This document shows positions 43,304 to 58,216 of a stretch of DNA of 64,000 nt, in pieces. Origin of the DNA: Rothia sp. (in: high G+C Gram-positive bacteria) (GTDB taxonomy: Bacteria > Actinomycetota > Actinomycetes > Actinomycetales > Micrococcaceae); NCBI GenBank assembly GCA_030529845.1, contig JAUMWB010000001.1, forward strand, positions 62,001-126,000. The letters are read 5' to 3'. The first letter of the stretch is position 1. Each line of letters begins with the position of its first letter. The notes beneath the pieces were generated by a model. That model was not told where the DNA came from. It did not search any database and worked only from the letters and a program-made list of their open reading frames with translations. A program made the position numbers and the translations under genes.

Positions 43304-43564
43304 GCGTTGAGAAAGCTGACCCGGGCTCGCAGCGAAGCTGCTGGCTCGGATGAAGTGAGCGGGTACGTAGCACGCAAGAGCGAACGGAATCCGCTGCAAG
43401 GCGGGGCGTGAATCACGTGTGATGAGCACCGAGATTCCGAGCGTGCGAGGAAAATAAATCTTGGTGTGAATCTGGAGAGCTTGCGAGTCAGCCAGCGAAC
43501 CGGTGAGAGGGTCGGCAGCGATCGCGAGCCCCGGGTTAGCGACTCCTCTAGCTCTTGGCAACGC
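43304..43564. repeat. Palindromic intergenic repeat, copy 1 (long, nested form)
   Basis: Ends GCGTTG/CAACGC, then GACCCGGGCTCGC against GCGAGCCCCGGGTT near the borders (imperfect inverted repeat). It shares AGCGAAGCTGCTGGCTCGG (43331-43349) and TGAGAGGGTCGGCAGCGA (43504-43521) exactly with the copy at 49292. A further inverted repeat (CGGAATC/GATTCCG) is nested in its middle and makes this copy longer. It lies between the convergent 43085 gene and panB. Confidence 0.75.
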
Positions 43565-46086: not shown

Positions 46087-49000
46087 GTGACTCACGCCCC
46101 GCAGAACGACACCCCCGAAGAAGCCGCCCGCCGTGCCGAGGAAGAACGCAAGGCCCAGGCCCGTTTAATTGCCGAAATGGCTTCAGCCGGTTTCTACGAT
46201 GCAGCTAAGAGCGCCCGTTGGTTCAACGCCCGGGAGCTGGAAGGTATAGACCGGGCCCGACTGCTGGAGGGGCTACGTCTTGCCCCCTCACCCGATATCG
46301 CCCTACCTGCCCTGGTACGCCTGATTGAGCGGGCCCCTCGGGTCGCGCAACTGGCTGCTCGCGGGGCGGACGCTGAAGCCCTCTACCGCCTGTTGGGCGG
46401 CTCGGCGGCCCTGGGGGAGTTCCTGGTACGCCACCCCGAGCATGCTGACCTGCTCGAAACCGACCCCACCGCTTTTTCCGCTGTCGACCACCCTGCCTCT
46501 CTGCTCCCCGAAACAGATGACGAGAACCTCACCCCCATTGCTCCGCTCGATACGGTCTACCGTACCGACCTGCTGACAGCCGTGGGAGCCGACCCGGCAG
46601 CGTCCGCACCGGTAGCCACCCTCACCGGCAAGGAAGGCTACACCGCCCTGCGGGTTGCCTACCGACGCCACCTCACAGAGCTGGCTATCCACGACTTGAC
46701 CAGCTTTGCCCCCGTTCAGTTCATGCCCACCGTCGGCCGCCTCCTGGCTGATTTAGCTGCTGCTGCCCTGGAAGGAGCCCTGGCCATTGCCCGCGCCGAG
46801 GTCGGCCAAAGTCGAGGTGAAGATACCGTAGCCGCAGTGGAACTGGCCATTATTGGCATGGGCAAGTGTGGAGCTCGAGAACTAAACTACATCTCAGACG
46901 TGGATGTGGTGTACGCGGTTGCCCACGCCCCCCTCTCTAACCTGCCCGAAGGCTTTACCCCGCTCGATGAAAACACCTTGACCCAGGTTGGCACCGAACT
47001 AATCATGGCTCTGAGCAAGGCCATTATGGCACCGGCACCGGAGCCCTCTCTCTGGGAAGTCGACGCCAACCTGCGCCCCGAGGGTAAGGACGGAGCCCTC
47101 GTCCGCACCGTGGAGTCCTACACCACCTACTATAAGCGGTGGGCAGAAAACTGGGAGTTCCAGGCCCTCCTCAAGGCCCGCCCCATCGCTGGTACCCCCG
47201 AGCTGGGCGTCCGCTGGAGCCGATCCATGCGTCCTTTCATCTGGGAATCTGCAGCCCGAGAGTCCTTCGTCGAGTCCGTGCAGGCCATGCGCCAGCGCGT
47301 CACCGACAACATTCCTTCAGCGGAGGTCGACCGCCAAATTAAACTGGGCCCCGGCGGCTTACGCGACGTTGAGTTCACCGTGCAGCTACTCCAGCTCGTG
47401 CACGGCCGCACCGACGAGAGCATACGCACCCAAAGCACCACCGATTCTATCGCAGCCCTGGCCAAAGCTAGTTACATCGGCCGCAAAGACGCCCACGATT
47501 TTGCCGACAACTACGCTACCCTACGCGTCATGGAACACCGCATCCAGCTGCTCTACATGCGCCGCACCCACCTGATGCCCGAGAAGGAAAACGACCGGCG
47601 GTCCCTGGCCCGGGCCATGAATTTGCCGCTGGCCCCCACCCAGCTCACCGAGGCTGACATGCTCAAACAATGGGCGGGCATCAAGAGGGCCGTCAAATCC
47701 TTGCACGAGCGCCTCTTCTTCCGGCCCCTGCTGGCAGCTGTCGCCCACCTCTCCAAGGACGAAGTCGCCCTGTCACCGGCTGCCGCGCAAGACCGCCTAG
47801 CAGCCCTGGGGTACAAGGACCCGCGCCGGGCTATGGGCCACATCGAGGCCCTGACCAAGGGCTTGCGTCGCTCCGCCGAAATCCAGCGCACCCTCATGCC
47901 CGTTCTGCTGGGCTGGTTTGCTAAGGGCGTGGACCCGGACGCCGGCCTGCTCGGCTTCCGCCGTATCAGCGAGTCCCTGGGCGGCACCCCCTGGTACCTG
48001 CGCATGCTGCGGGACTCCCCGGCGGCCGCTGAACGCCTCTGCACCCTGCTCTCATCCTCCCGCTTCATCACCGACCTGCTCGAAGACATTCCCGAACCCA
48101 TCGCCTGGCTCGATAAGGAAGAAGACCTCAAACCCCGCGAAGCAGACGCTATTATCAGCGAGCTGCGCTCCCAGCTGACCCGCCATACCGACTCCGCCGA
48201 AGCAATCCGCGCCGTCCGTATGCTGCGCCGCCGTGAAATCCTCCGTCTTGCTATGGGTGAAGCGCTAGGCTTCAACAGCAACGCCGAAGTGGCTCACGGG
48301 CTCTCCAACATTGACCGGGGAGCCATCCAATCGGCTCTAGCTATTGCAGAGCGGGAACTGTACGTAGATAGCCGCGCCCCGCTGACCGATGTTGCCGTCA
48401 TTGCCATGGGCCGCCAGGGTGGAGCTGAAATTGGCTACGGCTCCGACTCCGACCTCATGTACGTGCACATCCCGCGCGATGGAGCCGACGAAAAGGCCGC
48501 CCAGGCAGAAGCCACCGACCTGATCAACCGCATGGTCACCCTGCTCAAACAGCCCACAACCCCGCCCATCCGTGCCGAAAAGGTGCTCGAAATTGATGCC
48601 GACCTGCGACCCGAAGGAAAATCCGGGGCCATGGTGCGCTCGCTCGAATCTTTTAGGGAGTACTACGAGCGCTGGGCTGATACCTGGGAGTTCCAGGCCC
48701 TGCTACGTGCCCGCCCCTTTGCTGGCTCAGAGTACGTGGGATCCGCCTTTATTGAGCTCATCGACCCCTACCGCTACCCGGCTACCTTCCCCGCGGAGAA
48801 GGTTACCGAGATTCGCCGCATGAAGGCTCGCGTTGAGACCGAACGGATGCCGCGCGGGGCAGACAAGACCCGTCAGCTCAAGCTGGGCCGCGGCGGGCTG
48901 ACGGACGTGGAGTGGCTGGTCCAGCTACTTCAGCTCCAGCACGCCCACCGGGTCGAGGGCATGCGCACCACCTCTACCCTCAAGGCTCTGGATGCCGCCG

Positions 49001-49291: not shown

Positions 49292-49395
49292 GTTCCGGGC
49301 TCGTAGCGAAGCTGCTGGCTCGGGGCTGGCGTGAATCGTCTCGTGAGCGCTAGCGAACCAGATGAGAGGGTCGGCAGCGAGCACGAGCCCGGAAC
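49292..49395. repeat. Palindromic intergenic repeat, copy 2 (compact form)
   Basis: Perfect 13-bp terminal inverted repeats GTTCCGGGCTCGT (49292-49304) and ACGAGCCCGGAAC (49383-49395). The interior carries AGCGAAGCTGCTGGCTCGG and TGAGAGGGTCGGCAGCGA, identical to copy 1, and can fold further. It lies between the convergent glnE and acetolactate decarboxylase genes. Confidence 0.8.
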
Positions 49396-50160: not shown

Positions 50161-50348
50161 AATTATCTCCTTGGGGTAAACGGCGGGTGTGCGCAAAAGC
50201 CGCGCTGCGGCGTCCTTTCTGAGGCGGACGCCTAAGCGCGGCTTTGTGCTCGTAATTTCAGTTTACTAGGGCTTAGACGCTGTAGTAGAGCTCGTAATGG
50301 GTGTGTATGAGTCTTTTTAAGAAGGCAGCAAAATTTTTCAGAAACCTA

Positions 50349-50410
50349 TTGACGTGAAGTGGAACACGCTGGTACTGTGATTTTTAACTTAATCCATATC
50401 TCTAAGGAGA
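50349..50410 (+). promoter_or_regulatory. Promoter and ribosome-binding site of the AT-rich cassette
   Basis: TTGACG (50349-50354), 18-bp spacer, TACTGT (50373-50378): a good sigma-70-type promoter. The leader ends with AAGGAGA (50404-50410), 3 nt before the ATG at 50414. The cassette therefore carries its own expression signals. Confidence 0.7.
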
Positions 50411-50413
50411 GAA

Positions 50414-50959
50414 ATGAATACTGAAAATATTTTTAGGAATATCGTAGATACCCCCGAGCGTATACGAGCAAGGGATGTTCAAATGTCGGCAGTTGCATAT
50501 CTTGAGACTCGAACAATCTTTATATCAGGTGTTCTTGAAACATCTGATCGTGCGGTTATGGTTACCTATGATTTGCCGTCCGAAGGTGAGTGGAATTTTG
50601 TAAAGGCTGAAACCAATCTTTCTGATGAAATTTGGAATTCCTGGATTATGAGTGTTGACGAGGGCGGTCGTTTTATTGACGATCCTGCTCGACCAAATAG
50701 GGCAATGCAATTTTCAAAATCAGTTATTAGTGACGACAAAAAACGTTTAGGTTTTTATGGTGGGGAAGTTCGCCCAGGTGAGTCAATCTTGAAACAATTT
50801 ACGATTGAAACTCCATCTCGTAAATTCTATATGTCACATGGCCGTAGGCATACGCCAAATTTCTTGCCCTCAGATATCGAAATACTCAGTGAAATTGAGA
50901 ACGGATATATTTTGGATCCTGCTTATGAAATCTTTGTACCTGTCGAAATTCGATTCTGA
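50414..50959 (+). CDS. Unrecognised 181-aa protein, first gene of AT-rich cassette
   Basis: No family recognised. It is a soluble protein without signal peptide or membrane segment, mixed charged and aromatic. Notable stretches are TYDLPSEGEWNFVKAE, GFYGGEVRPGESILKQF and SHGRRHTPNFLPSDIE; predicted beta-rich from its alternating pattern. Strong ribosome-binding site. Codon use is AT-ending, quite unlike the flanking GC-rich genes, which suggests horizontal acquisition. Its 3' end overlaps the probable start of the oxidoreductase gene by 35 nt, so the two are coupled. Could be a biosynthetic or accessory subunit acting with that oxidoreductase. Confidence 0.75.
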   Translation: MNTENIFRNIVDTPERIRARDVQMSAVAYLETRTIFISGVLETSDRAVMVTYDLPSEGEWNFVKAETNLSDEIWNSWIMSVDEGGRFIDDPARPNRAMQFSKSVISDDKKRLGFYGGEVRPGESILKQFTIETPSRKFYMSHGRRHTPNFLPSDIEILSEIENGYILDPAYEIFVPVEIRF

Positions 50960-52189
50960 GTGTGGGAACTCATATAAGTATCATTTTATACCGCCGTCTT
51001 CGCTTTTGGATTCTAAGATTAATAGATTTCGAGATGAGATTGTTTGGCCTGCTGGAGTCAAGCTTAGTAAAAGCGAGAAATCGGAAGAGGTGGATTGCGT
51101 AATTGTTGGTGGTGGTTTAGCTGCAATAACCCTTGCCTGCTACTTTTATCATGTAAATATTGATTTTGTTATAGTTGATCCACACGAACGTTTAGGTGAA
51201 AACTTTAAAAATCAAGTAGACAGAACAAATCAAAGAGTTATGCGTTCTCCTTACGAACATTATGTAGGTTGTCATAGAGTTTATGACTACTCTCTTTTGG
51301 ATTTTGCAAAAATATTTTATGGAAAATTAAGTGACATAGAAAAAGAGCAAGTTATTCTTGCTTCCGCTGGGCACCGTGGTGTTGTGCCTGTAGATATTTT
51401 TCTTTATCATTTAATGCATCAGATAAATACCCATGAGTTATCGAAAAGGCACTACATAGATTTTGCTGAAGAGTATTCTAAGGAGGGGGAGCTATTTAGT
51501 ATTTATCTAGACTCTGGGTATGAGATTAAGAGTAAATTTTTAGTACATGCTACGGGGAAAAGCATAAAAAAATAGATTTTGAATCTTGTAATTCCTACAC
51601 TTGGGACTCTCCTCATGTTGGTGAAATCACTGAATCTAAAGTTCTTGTTGTAGGAGCCGGTCAAACCGCAGCGAACGTAACTGAAATGCTAATTTATAAT
51701 AGTTGTATGGTAGATATTGCGTTTCCAGGGGATGAAATTAACTTTCGATGTGTTGATTCAACTCCACATTTTTTCAGGCCAGCGGGTCGAGTGGAGGCAA
51801 ATTTATCGGGTAATACTATAAAGTTTCCAGCTAGCATGATGTTGGAATATGAGGAGAAATTTAAAAATTACGAAAAAAATGGATATCTTAGGGTAATTCC
51901 TAATGTTAGTCTTGTAAAAGACTCTGAGGGAAAACCTGTCTTACAGGGTTTGAATAATTTTTCCTCAGTCGATAGATATGATTATATTATCCAGTGTCTA
52001 GGTTTGGAAAATAATCATACATTTACTCCCAAACTACCGGTGAGTTTAGACTGTAGTATCTCACCTAATGAGTATGTCATAGGAGCCAATGCTCGTGAGG
52101 CTGTTGGTCCAGCAGCGCGAAATATTGATGGGCATAGAGTTGCTGCTGAAAGAATTGTTTCATCAATCATTGGTAAGATAGGTGTTTAG
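50925..52189 (+). CDS. FAD/NAD(P)H-dependent oxidoreductase (monooxygenase-like), interrupted at an A7 run
   Basis: Two frames together encode about 421 aa. The first, 50925-51575, carries the N-terminal FAD Rossmann motif (DCVIVGGGLAAITLACY) and MRSPYEHYVG. The second, 51572-52189, carries the NAD(P)H Rossmann motif (VLVVGAGQTAANVTEM) and a C-terminal YDYIIQCLGLENN. The split is at A AAA AAA TAG (51566-51575), a phase-correct -1 slippery heptamer before the stop; one slip restores a continuous reading frame. The overall plan matches flavin monooxygenases of the N-hydroxylase/class B type. The start at ATG 50925 is the most upstream sensible one; the ribosome-binding site is weak. Substrate unknown. 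Alternatives are a true pseudogene or a homopolymer sequencing error. Confidence 0.7.
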
Positions 52190-52610
52190 CTATATGCAAG
52201 ACAACCGGTATAGAGATATTTTAAGAAACATAACATATGATAATAGTATCTCGTTTCAGGAAAAAATACTCCTAGGGACTTCTAGGAATAAGCTTATACA
52301 TGCATTTTTTGATGGAAAATCATGTGATAAATCGTGTCTTAGTCATCTAGGTAAGCATCTTATTTCTGCTGAATTTTTGGAGCACACTGAAGATGTTGAA
52401 CGTTTTTTGCAGAAGGAATATGAGTGTCTTGCAATAATTGATTCCCTGATGTTAAAGTTTAATATTTTCCATTTATCTGAAAGATATCATTACAATGTTT
52501 ACAATAATATTCTTGAAAAATTGTCTCATGGTTCTGAATCTGAGATTACTTGCTCGCTGAGGCTGTCTGCCGCAGCTATTATGTATCTAGCGGGTGATCA
52601 AAATATCTGA
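52182..52610 (+). CDS. Unrecognised 142-aa protein of AT-rich cassette
   Basis: No family recognised. Predicted mainly helical and soluble, with four Cys (FFDGKSCDKSCLSHLG, plus EYECLAI and ITCSLRL). GTG at 52182 overlaps the oxidoreductase stop by 8 nt; ATG at 52194 is an alternative start. It overlaps the transporter gene by 17 nt, so the gene is embedded in a tightly packed operon. AT-ending codon use as in its neighbours. The CxxxC pair could bind metal, but this is speculation. Confidence 0.65.
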   Translation: MFSYMQDNRYRDILRNITYDNSISFQEKILLGTSRNKLIHAFFDGKSCDKSCLSHLGKHLISAEFLEHTEDVERFLQKEYECLAIIDSLMLKFNIFHLSERYHYNVYNNILEKLSHGSESEITCSLRLSAAAIMYLAGDQNI

Positions 52611-53835
52611 TAAAATTGAAATTGGCATATATAAAAAGTTATATACAACTACTCTTATAAACCTTATTTCTGATTCAGTGGTTCATGTTGCACTTCCACT
52701 AGCCTTCCTGTATGCGACAGGTTCAGTTTCCGCTGCTGCTTCGTTGGCCACTGCAAGTTTGGTAACTCAGCTGGTTCTGGCTTTACCTCTTGCTGCTATT
52801 GCAGACTGCTTACCCCGCCGCCCTATCGTTATCTTAGCATATTTTATAGAAGCTATTTCTCTATCTGTTTTAGCGGGTATGTTATATATGCAGTCGGTCA
52901 GTATTTTAGCCCTCATAATTCTTGGTTTTATTCGAGGGGGTTCAAGCCAGCTAAGTGTATCAGCTACAGCAGGCTATCTTCCTCAGCTTCTGGGTCGCGA
53001 ATCGATGCTCAAGTTTAATTCACGGGTGGAAACTGTGGAGGGCGTGGCTGCAATAGGTGGTCCTTCGCTTTCAGGAGGGTTAGTAGGGCTACTTGGAGGT
53101 CCACTTTCGTTATTGGTTCCTTCAATGATGTCAATATTCAATGCTCTTGTATATAAGACCCTCCCTGCTACCGAAGTCCCAGAGAAACTGAAAGGAAAAA
53201 GGAAAATCAGAGAAGCTCTCTCATCTATCATTCCTGATATATGGGAAGGAATTCTCTATGTGCTCCGAAGCCCTTCGCTGGTGGTCATGCAACTGGTTCA
53301 AATAGCTTTGGGATTAACAACTGCCGGCTATATTTATGGAGTCCTTGTTCATCTTAAGCACGGGTTAGAACTTGAAACATGGTTAGTGGGTATACTTGTA
53401 GCTTCCACAGGCGTTGGGGGCATAGTAGCTTCTCTGCTACTTGAAAAAGTTTTTCCCATTTCCCAATATCGCTCCGTTCTTATAGTATCCCTTGCTTCCA
53501 TAGCTTTTCTTTTATCCGCTTTTTCCTTCATAGAGGGGATCTGGGTTGCGGCAATAGCTTTATTTGCTTTAGATTTTTTCTGGGTGGCTATTTTTATTTA
53601 CTCAGGAACTCTTACGCAATACATTACGGATGATGCTTATCTTGCCCGAGTAGATTCAGTCTCTGATTTATCATTTCTTTCTGCCTCTGCGGTGTCAGTA
53701 TTTTTGGCTAGCTGGGTGCTTGACGGATGGGGAACAGGGACTTACCTCAGTATCATATCTTTCTCCGTATTACCCGCTTTTCTTACTCTGCTCCTATGGA
53801 TGAGGAATGGTAAAGGAGAAGTGAAGAAAGCATAA
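52594..53835 (+). CDS. MFS transporter (probable exporter) of AT-rich cassette
   Basis: 413-aa polytopic protein with about 12 hydrophobic segments, of the MFS_3/EntS-like group. The motif A-like loop is ADCLPRRPIVI; the second repeat begins around residue 215. Members often export siderophores, antibiotics or small peptides. GTG start inside the preceding gene (17-nt overlap). It would export or confer resistance to the product made by the upstream oxidoreductase and unknown proteins. Slightly less AT-biased than the genes before it. Confidence 0.85.
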   Translation: MIKISDKIEIGIYKKLYTTTLINLISDSVVHVALPLAFLYATGSVSAAASLATASLVTQLVLALPLAAIADCLPRRPIVILAYFIEAISLSVLAGMLYMQSVSILALIILGFIRGGSSQLSVSATAGYLPQLLGRESMLKFNSRVETVEGVAAIGGPSLSGGLVGLLGGPLSLLVPSMMSIFNALVYKTLPATEVPEKLKGKRKIREALSSIIPDIWEGILYVLRSPSLVVMQLVQIALGLTTAGYIYGVLVHLKHGLELETWLVGILVASTGVGGIVASLLLEKVFPISQYRSVLIVSLASIAFLLSAFSFIEGIWVAAIALFALDFFWVAIFIYSGTLTQYITDDAYLARVDSVSDLSFLSASAVSVFLASWVLDGWGTGTYLSIISFSVLPAFLTLLLWMRNGKGEVKKA

Positions 53836-54016
53836 TCTATAAGGGACAGAGAATAAGCCTCAGGGGCAGACAAGATAGCAAGCTTACGGTGAACAAGATG
53901 AGAGGCTCAGGCCAGCGCCTATTGCGCCCGGAGACATGTTTTTGCTCGGAAGCTACTGGGATTAAATCGAGTGCAAGCTTTGAATATCTTGTGAATGCCC
54001 CGCAATGAAAGTGTAA
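53836..54016. other. Non-coding stretch after the cassette
   Basis: No gene is seen. Base composition returns toward that of the chromosome. GAATAAGCCTC at 53851-53861 repeats the 11-bp motif found at both ends of the palindromic element that follows (inverted at 54017, direct at 54165). It might mark a decayed border of the insertion. The combined gap to the glnE fragment is 339 nt. Confidence 0.5.
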
Positions 54017-54175
54017 GAGGCTTATTCAAAAGTCCAGACTCAGAGTGCCCCAGGCTCCCGCTTGCCGCTGACCCTCTCGCCTGATTCGCTTCGCTCATAA
54101 GGCGATTCATGCCAGCCCCGCGCCAGCGGCGGCGCTGTACGCCTGAGGCACCGAAGCACCTTTTGAATAAGCCTC
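54017..54175. repeat. Palindromic intergenic repeat, copy 3, with 16-bp terminal inverted repeats
   Basis: Perfect termini GAGGCTTATTCAAAAG (54017-54032) and CTTTTGAATAAGCCTC (54160-54175), with a second inner pair TGCCCCAGGC/GCCTGAGGCA. The interior, read on the minus strand, is homologous to copies 1 and 2: it has GACCCTCTC, GATTCATGCCAGCCCCG and a GCCAGCGGC-like core. It abuts the decayed glnE fragment. Confidence 0.75.
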
Positions 54176-54442
54176 TAAGTGCAGATGAAGTGACCAGATG
54201 CAAGGATGCCCATACCCTGCGGTCTGCCTGGGAGCTGGCCACCAAAATCCGGGGGGGGGGCTTAACGTCCTGCGGACGGGCCGGGCTTCCGATACTCTGA
54301 CCACTACTATGCGGGCGGATTTGGAGGCTATAGCCCGCTGGTGTGGCTATGCCCCCACCAGGCGAGTGCCCTTGAGGATGATTATCTGAAAATTACCTGT
54401 CAGTGCCGTAACGTCTTTGAGCGGCTTTTCTACCCGGCCTAG
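54175..54442 (+). pseudogene. Decayed 3' fragment of a second glnE copy
   Basis: Translation in three successive frames gives LRSAWELATKIRG, then LNVLRTGRASDTLTTT...DLEAIARWCGYAP, then ALEDDYLKITCQCRNVFERL and FYPA-stop. This aligns with the last ~88 codons of the intact glnE ending at 49257. Frameshifts occur at a G10 tract (54251-54260) and near CCCCCACC (54354). The DNA is clearly diverged from the intact gene, so this is not a recent tandem duplication. Confidence 0.85.
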
Positions 54443-54456
54443 CCTGTAAGAAAAGG

Positions 54457-54500
54457 AACTGCCCCCGGCATCCAAAGCGGATGCCGGGGGCAGTTTCTTT
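54457..54500. terminator. Strong bidirectional terminator before glnA1
   Basis: AACTGCCCCCGGCATCC, loop AAAGC, GGATGCCGGGGGCAGTT: a 17-bp stem followed by TCTTTT, with AAAA on the other side. It ends glnA1 (minus strand) and probably once ended the lost glnE copy. Confidence 0.92.
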
Positions 54501-54515
54501 TAGGCTAGCTAGGGC

Positions 54516-55940
54516 TTAGACGCCGTAGTACATCTGGTATTCGAGGGGGTGGGGGACCAGCAGCAGGGGGGCGAGCTCGTTGCTGCGCTTGTAGTCTATC
54601 CAGGCTGAGATGAGGTCTTCGGTGAAGACGTCGCCTGCCAGCAGGAAGTCGTGGTCCTGCTCGAGGGCGTCAAGGGCTTCCTCAAGGTTGGCGGGTGCCT
54701 TCTTGATGTCTGCGGCTTCTTCGGCGGGCAGCTCGTAGAGGTCCTTGTCGATGGGTGCGGGGGGTTCGATGCGGTTGCGGATACCGTCCAGACCAGCCAT
54801 GAGCTGGGCAGCGAAAGCCAGGTAGGGGTTGGATGAGGGGTCCGGCGCACGGAATTCGAGGCGCTTAGCCTTGGGGTTGGTTCCAGTGATGGGAATGCGG
54901 ATACCTGCTGAGCGGTTGCCCTGGGAGTAGACCATGTTGATGGGGGCTTCGTAGCCGGGCACCAGGCGCTTGTAGGAGTTGACGGTGGGGTTGGTGAAAG
55001 CCAGAACTGATGAGGAGTGCTCAATCAGACCGCCAATGTACCAGCGGGCAACATCGGAAAGACCTGCATAGCCGCGCTCATCGTAGAAGAGGGGCTCACC
55101 GTCCTGCCACAGTGACTGGTGGCAGTGCATACCTGAACCGTTATCGCCAAAGACGGGCTTGGGCATGAAGGTAACGGTCTTGCCCCACTGGTCGGCGGTG
55201 TTCTTGATGACGTACTTGAACTTGAGCAGGTCGTCGGCTGCCTGGGTGAGGGTGGAGAACTTGTAGTTAATCTCAGCCTGGCCGGGGGCACCTACTTCGT
55301 GGTGAGAGCGCTCTACTTCAAGGCCCACTTCGTCGAGGGCTACGCACATGGCGTCGCGCAGGTCGGCCTGCTTGTCGACGGGAGAGACGGGGAAATAGCC
55401 ACCCTTGACAGGGGTCTTATTGCCTAGGTTGCCACCCTCTTCCTTGCGGCCGGAGTTCCAGGGGGCTTCGTCGGAGTCGATCTTGAAGAAGACTGACTGG
55501 GGGGATACCTCGTGCTGGACATTTTCGAAGACGAAGAATTCTGCTTCGGATGCGAAGAAGGCGGTGTCGGCGATGCCGGTTGACTTCAGGTACTCTTCGG
55601 CACGTTCTGCTACGCCGCGGGGGTCGCGGTGGTAGGACTCGCCGGTGCGGGGGTTGACGATGGAGCCGGTGACGACCAGGGTCTTCTCAAGGCGGAAGGG
55701 GTCTACGTAGCAGCTGGTGACGTCGGGAATCAGCTGCATATCTGATTCGGCGATGCCCTGGAAGCCGCGGATAGAGGAACCGTCAAACATCTGACCGTTG
55801 ATGAAGAAATCTTCGTCGATAGCCTTTGCGGGCAGATTGAAGTGCTGCTGTACGCCAGGCAGGTCACAGAAGCGGATATCAACGAACTTGATGTCTTCGT
55901 TCTTGATGAAGTCGAGGACTTCCTGTGCGGTAGTGAACAT
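54516..55940 (-). CDS. glnA: Glutamine synthetase type I, GlnA1
   Basis: 474-aa dodecameric glutamine synthetase, main route of ammonia assimilation. Motifs: [53 protein letters not shown] and [13 protein letters not shown]. The adenylylation Tyr is in [10 protein letters not shown], near residue 402, the GlnE target site. AAGGAG precedes the ATG. The upstream region contains GlnR-like boxes, so both transcriptional and covalent control are expected. Confidence 0.97.
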
Positions 55941-56051
55941 GGTCGTTTGTTCTCCTTGAGTTGTTTTCGACCCATGGGCGCCCGTTTGCTTGGGCTCCCT
56001 CGCTGTTGTTTCTAGCCTAGAGCGTATTTTTTGCCCTAAAGTATCGCTTTT

Positions 56052-56097
56052 GTTTCGCGTGTGTAACGTACCGTCGGCTGGGTTGCGTTGGTGTTAC
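56052..56097 (-). promoter_or_regulatory. GlnR operator upstream of glnA1
   Basis: On the glnA1 coding strand, GTTAC-ACACGC-GAAAC (56067-56052) is a perfect GTnAC-N6-GaAAC box. GTAAC-ACCAAC-GCAAC (56097-56082) is a second box with one mismatch, 30 bp away (three helical turns). GlnR is the actinobacterial nitrogen regulator and glnA its best-known target. No GlnR gene is in the window. Confidence 0.75.
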
Positions 56098-56210
56098 GTG
56101 GGTTTGGGTGGCTAGCTCCCTGTATCTAGTGTAGGCGCTCTGAGAGCGGGTTTTGCAGAGGGGAGGACGCTTGTACCCAGTTTTCAGGGGCGAGAAGGGG
56201 TAAGAGCCGG

Positions 56211-56216
56211 TAAGGT
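56211..56216 (+). promoter_or_regulatory. -10 box for leaderless RDD gene
   Basis: TAAGGT followed by 7 nt (TAGTTGG) and the GTG start at 56224; no ribosome-binding site is present. Confidence 0.55.
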
Positions 56217-56223
56217 TAGTTGG

Positions 56224-56685
56224 GTGGTTACGAGAAGAGATTTAGGTTCCTGGATTGAGGGGGCTCCTAGCGACCAGGAGTACCCCGGGCAGACTATGGG
56301 TAGGCCGCAGTCGGGGCGGGGCTCAATCGCTCGCCCTATGCGCCGCCTACTGGCTTTTTGGGTTGACTGGCTACTGATTGAGGGCATGTTTTATGTGCTA
56401 GGGCAGACTGCTTTTCCGCAGGCGAGTACCGCTGTGCTCGATGTAGCCCAGCTGGTTATTTTCTGGCTTTATATGGTGGCTGCTGTCGGCTTTATGGGGC
56501 ATACGGTGGGGCATTTTGCTTTCGGTATGCAGGTGCAACGCCTTGACGGTAAACCAGCCGGTTGGCTGACTGCCCTGATCCGTCAGTCGATGGTCATGCT
56601 ACTACTTCCAGTGGTGATTATGGACGCCGACCAGCGTGGCCTACATGACCGGGCCCGCCACACTATCTTGGTGATGATTCGATAG
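56224..56685 (+). CDS. RDD family membrane protein
   Basis: 153-aa protein with an N-terminal Pro/Gly-rich hydrophilic stretch, then the RDD domain: SIARPMRRLLAFWVDWLLIE (Arg and Asp of the signature), three hydrophobic segments and DQRGLHDRARHTILV. RDD proteins are small integral membrane proteins, some implicated in ion exchange. The M. tuberculosis homologue Rv2219A has the same position next to glnA1. GTG start; the downstream gene begins immediately after the stop, so the pair is an operon. Confidence 0.88.
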   Translation: MVTRRDLGSWIEGAPSDQEYPGQTMGRPQSGRGSIARPMRRLLAFWVDWLLIEGMFYVLGQTAFPQASTAVLDVAQLVIFWLYMVAAVGFMGHTVGHFAFGMQVQRLDGKPAGWLTALIRQSMVMLLLPVVIMDADQRGLHDRARHTILVMIR

Positions 56686-57399
56686 ATGAAAGATGATATG
56701 ACGACCCCCACCCCCGAAGAGCTGCCCAAAGAGAACGATCCGGCACTGCCGTCCTTTCTCACAAAGCCCGGCCCTGTCGATAAGGTGCTCCTGAGCCTTC
56801 TGGCCTTTATGACCATCTTTTCGATGGTGATGATTCCCCTGCGACCCAATCTGCTGGTGAATGCTCCCTGGCTGCTGTCACTACTGACCGGTTCAGGCCT
56901 GGGTCTACTCATTACCGCAGCCCAGAACCAGGGAGCGGTATTCATGCTAGCTGCTCTCACCGCCGCAGCTGCCGCTAGCCACATCAAGTTTATGGCTGTC
57001 TACTTTTTGATGGGTAAGCACTGGGGCCAGGATTTTATTAACTGGATGTTCGCCAACCACACCCCCCTGTGGTGGCGTAAGCTTGAGGGCTTCGTTGAGA
57101 AACACCTTTTTTTGAGCCTGCTTCTTGGCTTTATCCCCTTCTCACCGATTCCTGCAACGATTCTGGTGGCTATCGCCGGTATTCGTAAGCTCAAGGGCTG
57201 GATGATTGGTCTTTACATCTACCTGTTGGCTGTGGCTAACAAACTTTTTTACCTCTACCTGGGTCTACGTTTCGGCGAGGGTATTCAACCCACTCTTGAA
57301 ACCATTGACCGCTACATGATGCAGATAACCCTGGCTCTGATTGCCTATGTCTTCATCATGAACTGGTGGCGCGGATCCAAAAAGCAGTCAGTAGAGTAA
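56686..57399 (+). CDS. Polytopic membrane protein of unknown function
   Basis: 237-aa protein with about six hydrophobic segments after a 30-residue hydrophilic N-terminus. The central FLSLLLGFIPFSPIPATILVAIAG (shown partly as GFIPFSPIPATILV) with adjacent Gly/Pro-rich helices is reminiscent of SNARE-associated/VTT (DedA-like) proteins but the match is loose. The ATG follows directly on the RDD stop; a second ATG lies 4 codons later. No function assigned. Confidence 0.75.
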   Translation: MKDDMTTPTPEELPKENDPALPSFLTKPGPVDKVLLSLLAFMTIFSMVMIPLRPNLLVNAPWLLSLLTGSGLGLLITAAQNQGAVFMLAALTAAAAASHIKFMAVYFLMGKHWGQDFINWMFANHTPLWWRKLEGFVEKHLFLSLLLGFIPFSPIPATILVAIAGIRKLKGWMIGLYIYLLAVANKLFYLYLGLRFGEGIQPTLETIDRYMMQITLALIAYVFIMNWWRGSKKQSVE

Positions 57400-57421
57400 T
57401 TCTTGTGCAAAGATAAAAAAG

Positions 57422-57453
57422 GGGGCCCGCTCAACCAACGTTGAGCGGGCCCC
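57422..57453. terminator. Bidirectional terminator
   Basis: GGGGCCCGCTCAA (57422-57434), loop CCAACG, TTGAGCGGGCCCC (57441-57453): a perfect 13-bp stem preceded by AAAAAA, which gives the T-tract for the minus-strand gene. Lies between convergent genes. Confidence 0.88.
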
Positions 57454-57466
57454 TAATGTTTGAGGC

Positions 57467-58216
57467 TTAGCGCATGCCCTTGCGGTCGGGGCGCATACGC
57501 ATGGGGTCAATACCCTTAGGAATAGCGTTCAGCATGTTGTTGTGCTTGGACAGCGAATCAATGCGGTTGGCGACCTGGTGCATTTCCTGCTGGGTCAGCT
57601 TCTTGGGCAGCTTGTTCATGGTCTTGGTGAGCTGCTTGAGTTCTACCTGCCCCTCAGCATGGCCGGTGTTGATCACGGTTACAGGAACGGTGGGTACAAT
57701 CTTGGAGTACTTGAGCTTTTCTTTCTGCACTAGGGCGTTGACGCGACCGGTGGGACCTTCGGTGACCAGGACGATGCCGGGGCGGCCGATAGCGCGGAAG
57801 ACGACGTCCTGAGACTTATTGGCAGCTACGGGCTGCTGCTCGAAAATCCAGCCGCGGCGCAGGGTTGAGAGGGCGGCGCCAGAGCGGCCTGGCTGACCCT
57901 CCAACTGAGCAAAGGCTGCTTTTTCTGCTCGGCGTGAGAGCACCATGACCGCAAACAGAATACCTAGAGGAATACCAATGAGGAGGAAAGTGATCCAGTT
58001 GTTCAGCAGCAGACCGATGAGCAGGAAGACCAGGATGGTGCCGAAGAAAACCAGGGCCATAATCCAGGGGATGTTGGGGTCCTGCTCGCGGGTCATGGCA
58101 TAGACCTGCTTCATCTGAGCAAACATGCCGGGGCCACGCTTGGCGCGGCGCTCTTCGCGAGCCTTCTTCTTTTCTTCGCGGGTCTGTGCGCGGGTGCTGC
58201 CACGGGATTCAGCCAC
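57467..58216 (-). CDS. DUF4191 membrane protein
   Basis: 249-aa protein: charged N-terminus (REEKKKAREERRAKRGPG), two adjacent membrane segments (~50-95), and a cytosolic C-terminal domain with RPGIVLVTEGPTGRVNALV. Matches DUF4191 (M. tuberculosis Rv2219), which lies between lipA and glnA1 there too. GTG start with GAAGGA upstream. Function unknown. Confidence 0.9.
   Translation of the reverse strand: MAESRGSTRAQTREEKKKAREERRAKRGPGMFAQMKQVYAMTREQDPNIPWIMALVFFGTILVFLLIGLLLNNWITFLLIGIPLGILFAVMVLSRRAEKAAFAQLEGQPGRSGAALSTLRRGWIFEQQPVAANKSQDVVFRAIGRPGIVLVTEGPTGRVNALVQKEKLKYSKIVPTVPVTVINTGHAEGQVELKQLTKTMNKLPKKLTQQEMHQVANRIDSLSKHNNMLNAIPKGIDPMRMRPDRKGMR

What the first reader, a model, noticed from the sequence alone, without database searches (positions are those of the whole stretch)
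50349..53835. AT-rich four-gene cassette inserted between glnE and glnA1: candidate unknown metabolite modification/export system
Seen: four tightly overlapping genes (35-, 8- and 17-nt overlaps) with their own promoter TTGACG-N18-TACTGT. Base composition falls abruptly: 52201-52260 has 18 G/C in 60, against 41 in 60 at 47041-47100 in glnE. Products: an unrecognised 181-aa protein, a FAD/NAD(P)H oxidoreductase, an unrecognised 142-aa protein and an MFS exporter. Inference: a monooxygenase-type enzyme plus exporter plus two new proteins suggests synthesis or detoxification of a small molecule. No synthetase, carrier protein or precursor peptide was recognised.
Basis: partly seen in the sequence, partly recalled or inferred. 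Interest (0 to 1): 0.85.

Follow-up and report, generated by a model that had tools for sequence, protein, structure and literature searches.

The report
Foreign flavoenzyme-exporter cassette in Rothia
A small block of foreign genes inserted in a Rothia chromosome belongs to a gene module of unknown function whose sister version sits in the gene clusters for enediynes, very potent DNA-damaging antibiotics, so it may make, modify or fend off a reactive small molecule.

Summary
The AT-rich cassette is real and acquired: part of a 4.2-kb insertion (50297-54511) at the 3' end of glnA1, with the empty site seen in six related genomes. Its genes are DUF6423 (181 aa), a two-Rossmann FAD/NAD(P)H oxidoreductase, a 142-aa orphan and an MFS exporter. 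Two corrections: budA, an ordinary Rothia gene, lies between glnE and the cassette; and the oxidoreductase is two reading frames here, broken at an A-run. Rothia sp. RSM386 has an intact four-gene counterpart at another site. DUF6423 has this oxidoreductase beside it, or one gene away, in 37 of 37 collected loci. Two lineages appear. Lineage A (no exporter) belongs to enediyne polyketide clusters: in the Amycolatopsis genus sample 55 of 55 DUF6423-positive genomes have the enediyne-type thioesterase at 75% identity or more, against 7 of 25 negative ones. Lineage B (with MFS: two Rothia, a Salimicrobium plasmid, four Streptomyces) has it in 1 of 6 genomes searched; the window belongs here. Best reading: a stand-alone small-molecule modification-and-export module; main rival: a tolerance module akin to producers' self-resistance. 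The chemistry is unknown, and in this strain the enzyme may be dead. Paper searches for DUF6423, DUF6187 and DUF6235 found nothing.

The parts
50266..50296 (.). left copy of a 31-nt direct repeat (3' end of glnA1), left edge of the insertion
   Evidence: 87% identical to 54509-54539; window 44001/44007-50296 and 54512-58000 abut, with this short overlap, in 6 of 8 relatives' loci examined
50297..54511 (.). insertion (genomic islet) absent from relatives
   Evidence: empty site in L099, L100, L101, L102, L103, L106; in L104 and L105 budA lies near glnA1 and the islet finds no match other than none reported
50414..50959 (+). DUF6423 protein, 181 aa; predicted beta-sandwich
   Evidence: PF19987 E 1e-34, 120 bits, cut-off 29.7; AlphaFold2 pLDDT 82.4, pTM 0.78; 69% identical to the RSM386 protein over 169 residues
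50925..51575 (+). FAD/NAD(P)H oxidoreductase, first piece (216 aa), ends at TAG after an A-run
   Evidence: 43% identical to the N half of the intact RSM386 enzyme; keeps 33 of 41 columns invariant in 19 intact relatives
51572..52189 (+). oxidoreductase, second piece in another frame (205 residues without a stop)
   Evidence: 36% identical to the C half of the RSM386 enzyme; keeps 30 of 39 invariant columns
52182..52610 (+). 142-aa orphan protein, in the position taken by DUF6187 in relatives
   Evidence: no Pfam match above cut-off; 27% identity, E 1e-4 to the RSM386 125-aa protein; homology to DUF6187 not shown (hhalign probability 0.1)
52594..53835 (+). MFS exporter, 413 aa
   Evidence: PF07690 E 6.8e-19, TIGR00900 E 3.4e-35, below that model's cut-off; 30% identical to the RSM386 exporter
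54050..54136 (.). copy of a ~90-nt Rothia interspersed repeat inside the insertion
   Evidence: 78% to the copy at 49305-49392, inverted; further copies in L100-L103 and a split one at 43321-43531
54223..54437 (+). divergent remnant of a glnE 3' end
   Evidence: 71% and 74% to own glnE in two ungapped blocks; 67-72% to six relatives
54509..54539 (.). right copy of the 31-nt repeat, the true 3' end of glnA1

Best explanation
Shown: the cassette is a horizontally acquired, exporter-type (lineage B) member of a module built on DUF6423 and a flavin oxidoreductase; the sister lineage A is a regular part of enediyne polyketide clusters. Inferred: the module is self-contained small-molecule chemistry. 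The flavoenzyme oxidises a small, probably reactive or hydrophobic substrate; the DUF6423 beta-sandwich and the small protein bind or present it; the MFS protein exports the product. The module was then built once into (or once came out of) enediyne clusters, where the exporter is missing and DUF6235 and an AhpD-like CMD protein accompany it. In this strain the oxidoreductase is frame-broken, so the cassette is either decaying, or expressed through frame slippage at the A-run, or misread at a homopolymer.
For: DUF6423 with the oxidoreductase beside it or one gene away in 37 of 37 loci L005-L041; same four-gene order in RSM386; lineages A and B split by one branch in both the DUF6423 tree (40 rows, 98/90) and the oxidoreductase N-half tree (22 rows, 99/95). 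In lineage B Streptomyces (4 of 4) the module has an M16 peptidase pair beside it and a JmjC-type oxygenase downstream, which looks biosynthetic. In A. antarctica (L068) the module follows a UnbV_ASPIC protein and a P450 on the same strand. Acquisition: empty sites, G+C 39.0% against 59.3%, 2 of 35 genus genomes carry DUF6423.
Against: No substrate, product or activity is known. No carrier protein, synthetase or precursor was found beside the Rothia cassettes. RSM386 is reported to have one antiSMASH cluster, enterobactin (PMC12811043, passages), so nothing independent supports a product. A plasmid-borne and islet-borne module with an exporter fits tolerance as well. The 142-aa protein is not shown to be DUF6187. 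The enzyme is broken in this strain. Oxidation rather than reduction is inferred: profile hits in the PDB mix monooxygenases with disulfide reductases.
Confidence: 0.45

Rival explanations
1. Tolerance module: DUF6423 binds, the flavoenzyme inactivates and the MFS pump expels an enediyne-like or other toxic metabolite. Lineage A would be producers' self-resistance, lineage B the copy held by non-producers, as has been reported for TnmS sequestration proteins found in producers and in the human microbiome.
For: Lineage A tracks the enediyne thioesterase (55 of 55 against 7 of 25 in the Amycolatopsis sample; 5 of 7 against 26 of 385 in Streptomyces). The thioesterase was not found in either Rothia genome. 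Lineage B sits on an islet or a plasmid with an exporter. In G721 DUF6423 and the thioesterase are on different contigs, C2 and C3. TnmS precedent: PMC9854587, passages.
Against: Operons of four to five genes with two redox enzymes are large for resistance. The JmjC and M16 genes of lineage B Streptomyces have no obvious role in it. 26 of 31 thioesterase-positive Streptomyces lack DUF6423, so it is not general enediyne resistance. S. goshikiensis (lineage B) does carry the thioesterase.
Confidence: 0.33
2. Decaying foreign DNA: the cassette is a remnant without function in this strain, whatever it does elsewhere.
For: The oxidoreductase frame is broken; no structure beyond chance follows the A-run (z -0.90); the islet also holds a truncated glnE end.
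Against: The four other parts (three whole genes and two otherwise open pieces) show no second lesion; both pieces keep about 79% of the invariant columns, as much as a divergent intact relative does (RSM386 keeps 80 of 123).
Confidence: 0.35
3. Part of a peptide (RiPP) pathway, with the M16 pair of lineage B Streptomyces as leader peptidase.
For: M16 pair and JmjC oxygenase conserved in 4 of 4 lineage B Streptomyces.
Against: No small ORF of L009 outside the known genes was conserved in the other lineage B loci (20-95 aa, tblastn); no M16 gene among the annotated neighbours in Salimicrobium or beside the Rothia cassettes.
Confidence: 0.08

Closest known systems
Enediyne polyketide gene clusters (PKS, ACP-polyene thioesterase, UnbV-type proteins)
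   Same: The lineage A module lies in or near them: thioesterase in the fetched stretch of 22 of 37 loci, in the same contig for 53 of 55 Amycolatopsis genomes, median 5.6 kb, maximum 64 kb.
   Different: The window genome has no thioesterase match at E 1e-3, the cassette has an exporter and lacks DUF6235 and CMD, and it falls in the other lineage.
TnmS-type enediyne sequestration proteins (PMC9854587, passages; Chang et al. 2018 not read)
   Same: An enediyne-cluster gene family with kin in non-producing human-associated bacteria, if the tolerance reading holds.
   Different: DUF6423 is a different Pfam family, part of an operon with a flavoenzyme, and predicted as a beta-sandwich; no binding or tolerance has been tested.
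Group B flavin monooxygenases and Lys/Orn N-hydroxylases
   Same: Two-Rossmann FAD/NAD(P)H architecture; PDB profile hits include 4usq, 4usr, 4c5o, 4a9w and the lysine N6-monooxygenase 9nns, all weak (best E 7.9e-9).
   Different: The family has its own invariant blocks (RSPYEHHPG, DCE..DFAR, GPAA.NIDGHRV); disulfide reductases score alike; the Lys_Orn_oxgnase cut-off is passed by 1 of 3 intact members scanned.

Membership tests
Pfam DUF6423 (PF19987) | score above the curated cut-off | tested here: met
   120 bits against 29.7
DUF6423-oxidoreductase module | oxidoreductase of this family beside DUF6423 | tested here: met
   both pieces match the intact relatives, though in two frames
Lineage B (exporter type) | MFS gene in the cassette and phylogenetic place outside lineage A | tested here: met
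   long branches and deviant composition (L007, window, RSM386) are flagged in the oxidoreductase tree
DUF6187 | profile similarity of the 142-aa protein to DUF6187 | tested here: inconclusive
   no Pfam hit; hhalign probability 0.1; only the position agrees
Enediyne gene cluster | ACP-polyene thioesterase in the genome | tested here: not met
   no match in G000 at E 1e-3
Enediyne gene cluster | enediyne PKS in the genome | not tested
Enediyne gene cluster (for lineage A loci) | PKS with KS-AT-KR-DH, thioesterase, UnbV-type protein | tested here: met
   in chosen examples: L063 PKS domains and L068 UnbV_ASPIC, L025 thioesterase best hits 4i4j, 2w3x, 2xem
Flavin monooxygenase / N-hydroxylase | Lys_Orn_oxgnase (PF13434) above cut-off | tested here: inconclusive
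   window piece 18.7, RSM386 15.6, Salimicrobium 16.9, Streptomyces 23.5 bits; cut-off 21.3
RiPP pathway | a precursor peptide gene | tested here: inconclusive
   no conserved small ORF outside known genes from L009; a divergent one would be missed
Drug self-resistance / tolerance | changes drug susceptibility | not testable with these tools
   needs an experiment
Known anti-phage defence (PADLOC) | match to a PADLOC model | tested here: not met
   0 matches for 5 proteins at E 0.01

The most novel reading that the evidence does not exclude
The Rothia and Salimicrobium cassettes are stand-alone members of a self-protection system against enediynes or a similarly reactive class of metabolite: a DUF6423 binding protein, a flavoenzyme that inactivates the molecule and an exporter. 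The same module is built into enediyne producers, and it has spread by islets and plasmids to bacteria that make no enediyne, human-associated ones among them.
Probability: 0.25. Interest if true: 0.8.

Novelty: new variant of a known kind. Interest (0 to 1): 0.55.

Why it matters
DUF6423, DUF6187 and DUF6235 have no known function and occur in none of the papers searched. Tying them to enediyne clusters gives natural-product chemists a concrete operon to delete in Amycolatopsis. The exporter-type sister offers a compact stand-alone form for biochemistry. In RSM386, a nasal Rothia, the published antiSMASH survey reports only enterobactin (PMC12811043, passages), so this cassette seems to lie outside current genome mining.

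Tried and rejected

Weaknesses: genomes of one genus are not independent, so the Fisher values (1.4e-12 and 4e-5) overstate the evidence. At the looser E 1e-20, 14 of the 25 DUF6423-negative Amycolatopsis also have a thioesterase match. The Salimicrobium host and the chromosome of L006's strain were not searched by name. Gene calls in the high-G+C loci come from my own simple caller, which in its first form mixed up strands and was retrained.

Full report
What is there. The window lies in a genome whose congener G002 is Rothia sp. RSM386 (L003 is contained letter for letter in L008; kinship), so the window is taken to be Rothia. The second gene is not intact: its first piece (50925-51575) stops at TAG directly after seven A (51566-51572) and the remainder is open in another frame to 52189.

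The insertion. In six of eight relatives' loci examined (L099-L103, L106) the window's 44-kb side up to 50296 and its other side from 54512 abut, overlapping by about 30 nt. That overlap is the 31-nt direct repeat 50266-50296 / 54509-54539, the 3' end of glnA1. In the other two (L104, L105) budA lies near glnA1 and no match to the islet was reported. So 50297-54511 is an insertion; budA is not part of it (26 of 35 genus genomes have budA). The islet also carries a divergent glnE 3' remnant (67-74% identity) and a copy of a Rothia interspersed repeat, which suggests that it passed through another Rothia-like genome. DUF6423 was found in 2 of 35 genomes of the genus, 2 of 197 of the family and 1 of 396 of the phylum sample, the window's own.

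Wider distribution. A genome-contig scan gave 34 loci and the plasmid search three: 37 loci, L005-L041. The oxidoreductase lies next to DUF6423, or one gene away, in 37 of 37. A DUF6187 match is found in 33 of 37; L018 and L020 end near there, and L007 and L008 have other small proteins. DUF6235 is upstream in 33 of 37 and a CMD protein downstream in 28 of 37.

The enediyne link. A small hot-dog protein in Amycolatopsis loci has as best PDB hits 4i4j, 2w3x (CalE7) and 2xem (DynE7), E 4e-74 to 8e-37, that is, the enediyne-type thioesterase. It lies in the fetched stretch of 22 of 37 loci. Of the other 15, whole genomes or records were searched: 11 have it at 75-93% identity; L008 (RSM386), L014 and the two plasmid-only records (L006, L007) do not, nor does the window genome. 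In a phylum sample 1 of 246 genomes has a match at E 1e-20, and that one is 42% identical. In the Amycolatopsis genus sample (80 genomes) 55 have DUF6423, and all 55 have the thioesterase at 75% identity or more, against 7 of 25 without DUF6423 (14 of 25 at E 1e-20); in 53 of 55 both are on one contig, median 5.6 kb apart, maximum 64 kb. In Streptomyces (392 genomes) 5 of 7 DUF6423-positive genomes have it, against 26 of 385. In A. antarctica (L068) the operon follows a UnbV_ASPIC protein, a 333-aa protein and a P450 on the same strand and is followed by CMD, DUF5987 and GMC oxidoreductase genes. A PKS with KS, AT, KR and DH domains stands in the S. goshikiensis thioesterase region (L063).

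Two lineages. In the DUF6423 tree (40 rows) and in the tree of the oxidoreductase N-terminal half (22 rows) the exporter-less enediyne-cluster type (A) is separated by one supported branch from the exporter type (B): window, RSM386, Salimicrobium plasmid and Streptomyces L009, L014, L112, L113 (L113 in the first tree only). The tool flags L007, the window piece and RSM386 as long or oddly composed in the second tree. The trees are unrooted, so which type came first is open. Lineage B genomes: 1 of 6 searched wholly has the thioesterase (G614 yes; G000, G613, G616 no; G753 and G881 not among the matches). All four lineage B Streptomyces have an M16 peptidase pair beside the operon and a JmjC-type gene after it (families in L009).

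Mechanism. What is shown is anatomy, kinship and co-occurrence. My inference is that the flavoenzyme modifies a small molecule held by the DUF6423 protein and that the MFS protein exports the product. The alternative, that the set inactivates and expels a toxic molecule, fits nearly as well; it has a published parallel in TnmS proteins (PMC9854587, passages seen). I lean to modification and export because of the oxygenase and peptidase neighbours in lineage B and the embedded place in lineage A clusters, but the margin is small. In this strain the enzyme may be dead: the two pieces keep 33 of 41 and 30 of 39 invariant columns, and no further stop was seen, so the break is recent, programmed or an error. 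An A-run followed at once by a stop resembles a slippage site (recalled), but no downstream structure supports this.

Literature. No paper in the library holds DUF6423, DUF6187 or DUF6235. PMC5181780 (passages) surveys enediyne clusters and notes many unknown protein families; whether these are among them I could not see. PMC12811043 (passages) names RSM386 as Rothia similimucilaginosa and reports one cluster, enterobactin. PMC8725005 (first of four parts) describes DynF, another beta-rich protein of unknown function in an enediyne cluster, an eight-stranded barrel; no comparison with DUF6423 was made. PMC13347742 (passages) has no mention of enediyne, MFS or monooxygenase.

Noticed in passing
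window 49295-49392, 54050-54136, 43321-43531: A ~90-nt interspersed repeat, also in relatives L100-L103 (89-99% there for its better copies) and in a split form in L103 and L106; one copy lies inside the insertion, inverted.
   Followed up: partly
window 54251-54260: A run of ten G inside the glnE remnant.
   Followed up: no
L009, L014, L112, L113: M16 peptidase pair divergent to a DUF6423-MFS-oxidoreductase-DUF6187-JmjC operon in four Streptomyces; no precursor seen.
   Followed up: partly
G617, G618, G621, G624 thioesterase regions (L061, L062, L069): Two thioesterase homologues about 7 kb apart in one enediyne-type cluster, one of them only 48-50% identical to the query.
   Followed up: no
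G721 C2:1331778 and C3:258345: DUF6423 and the thioesterase on different contigs; the first place agrees with the 1.6-Mb plasmid of Streptomyces sp. NBC_01237 (H2), so the two may be on different replicons.
   Followed up: partly
L005 12522-13658: The S. finlayi plasmid oxidoreductase matches only up to residue 377 of 444 and is missing from the PLSDB gene table, so it may be broken as well.
   Followed up: no
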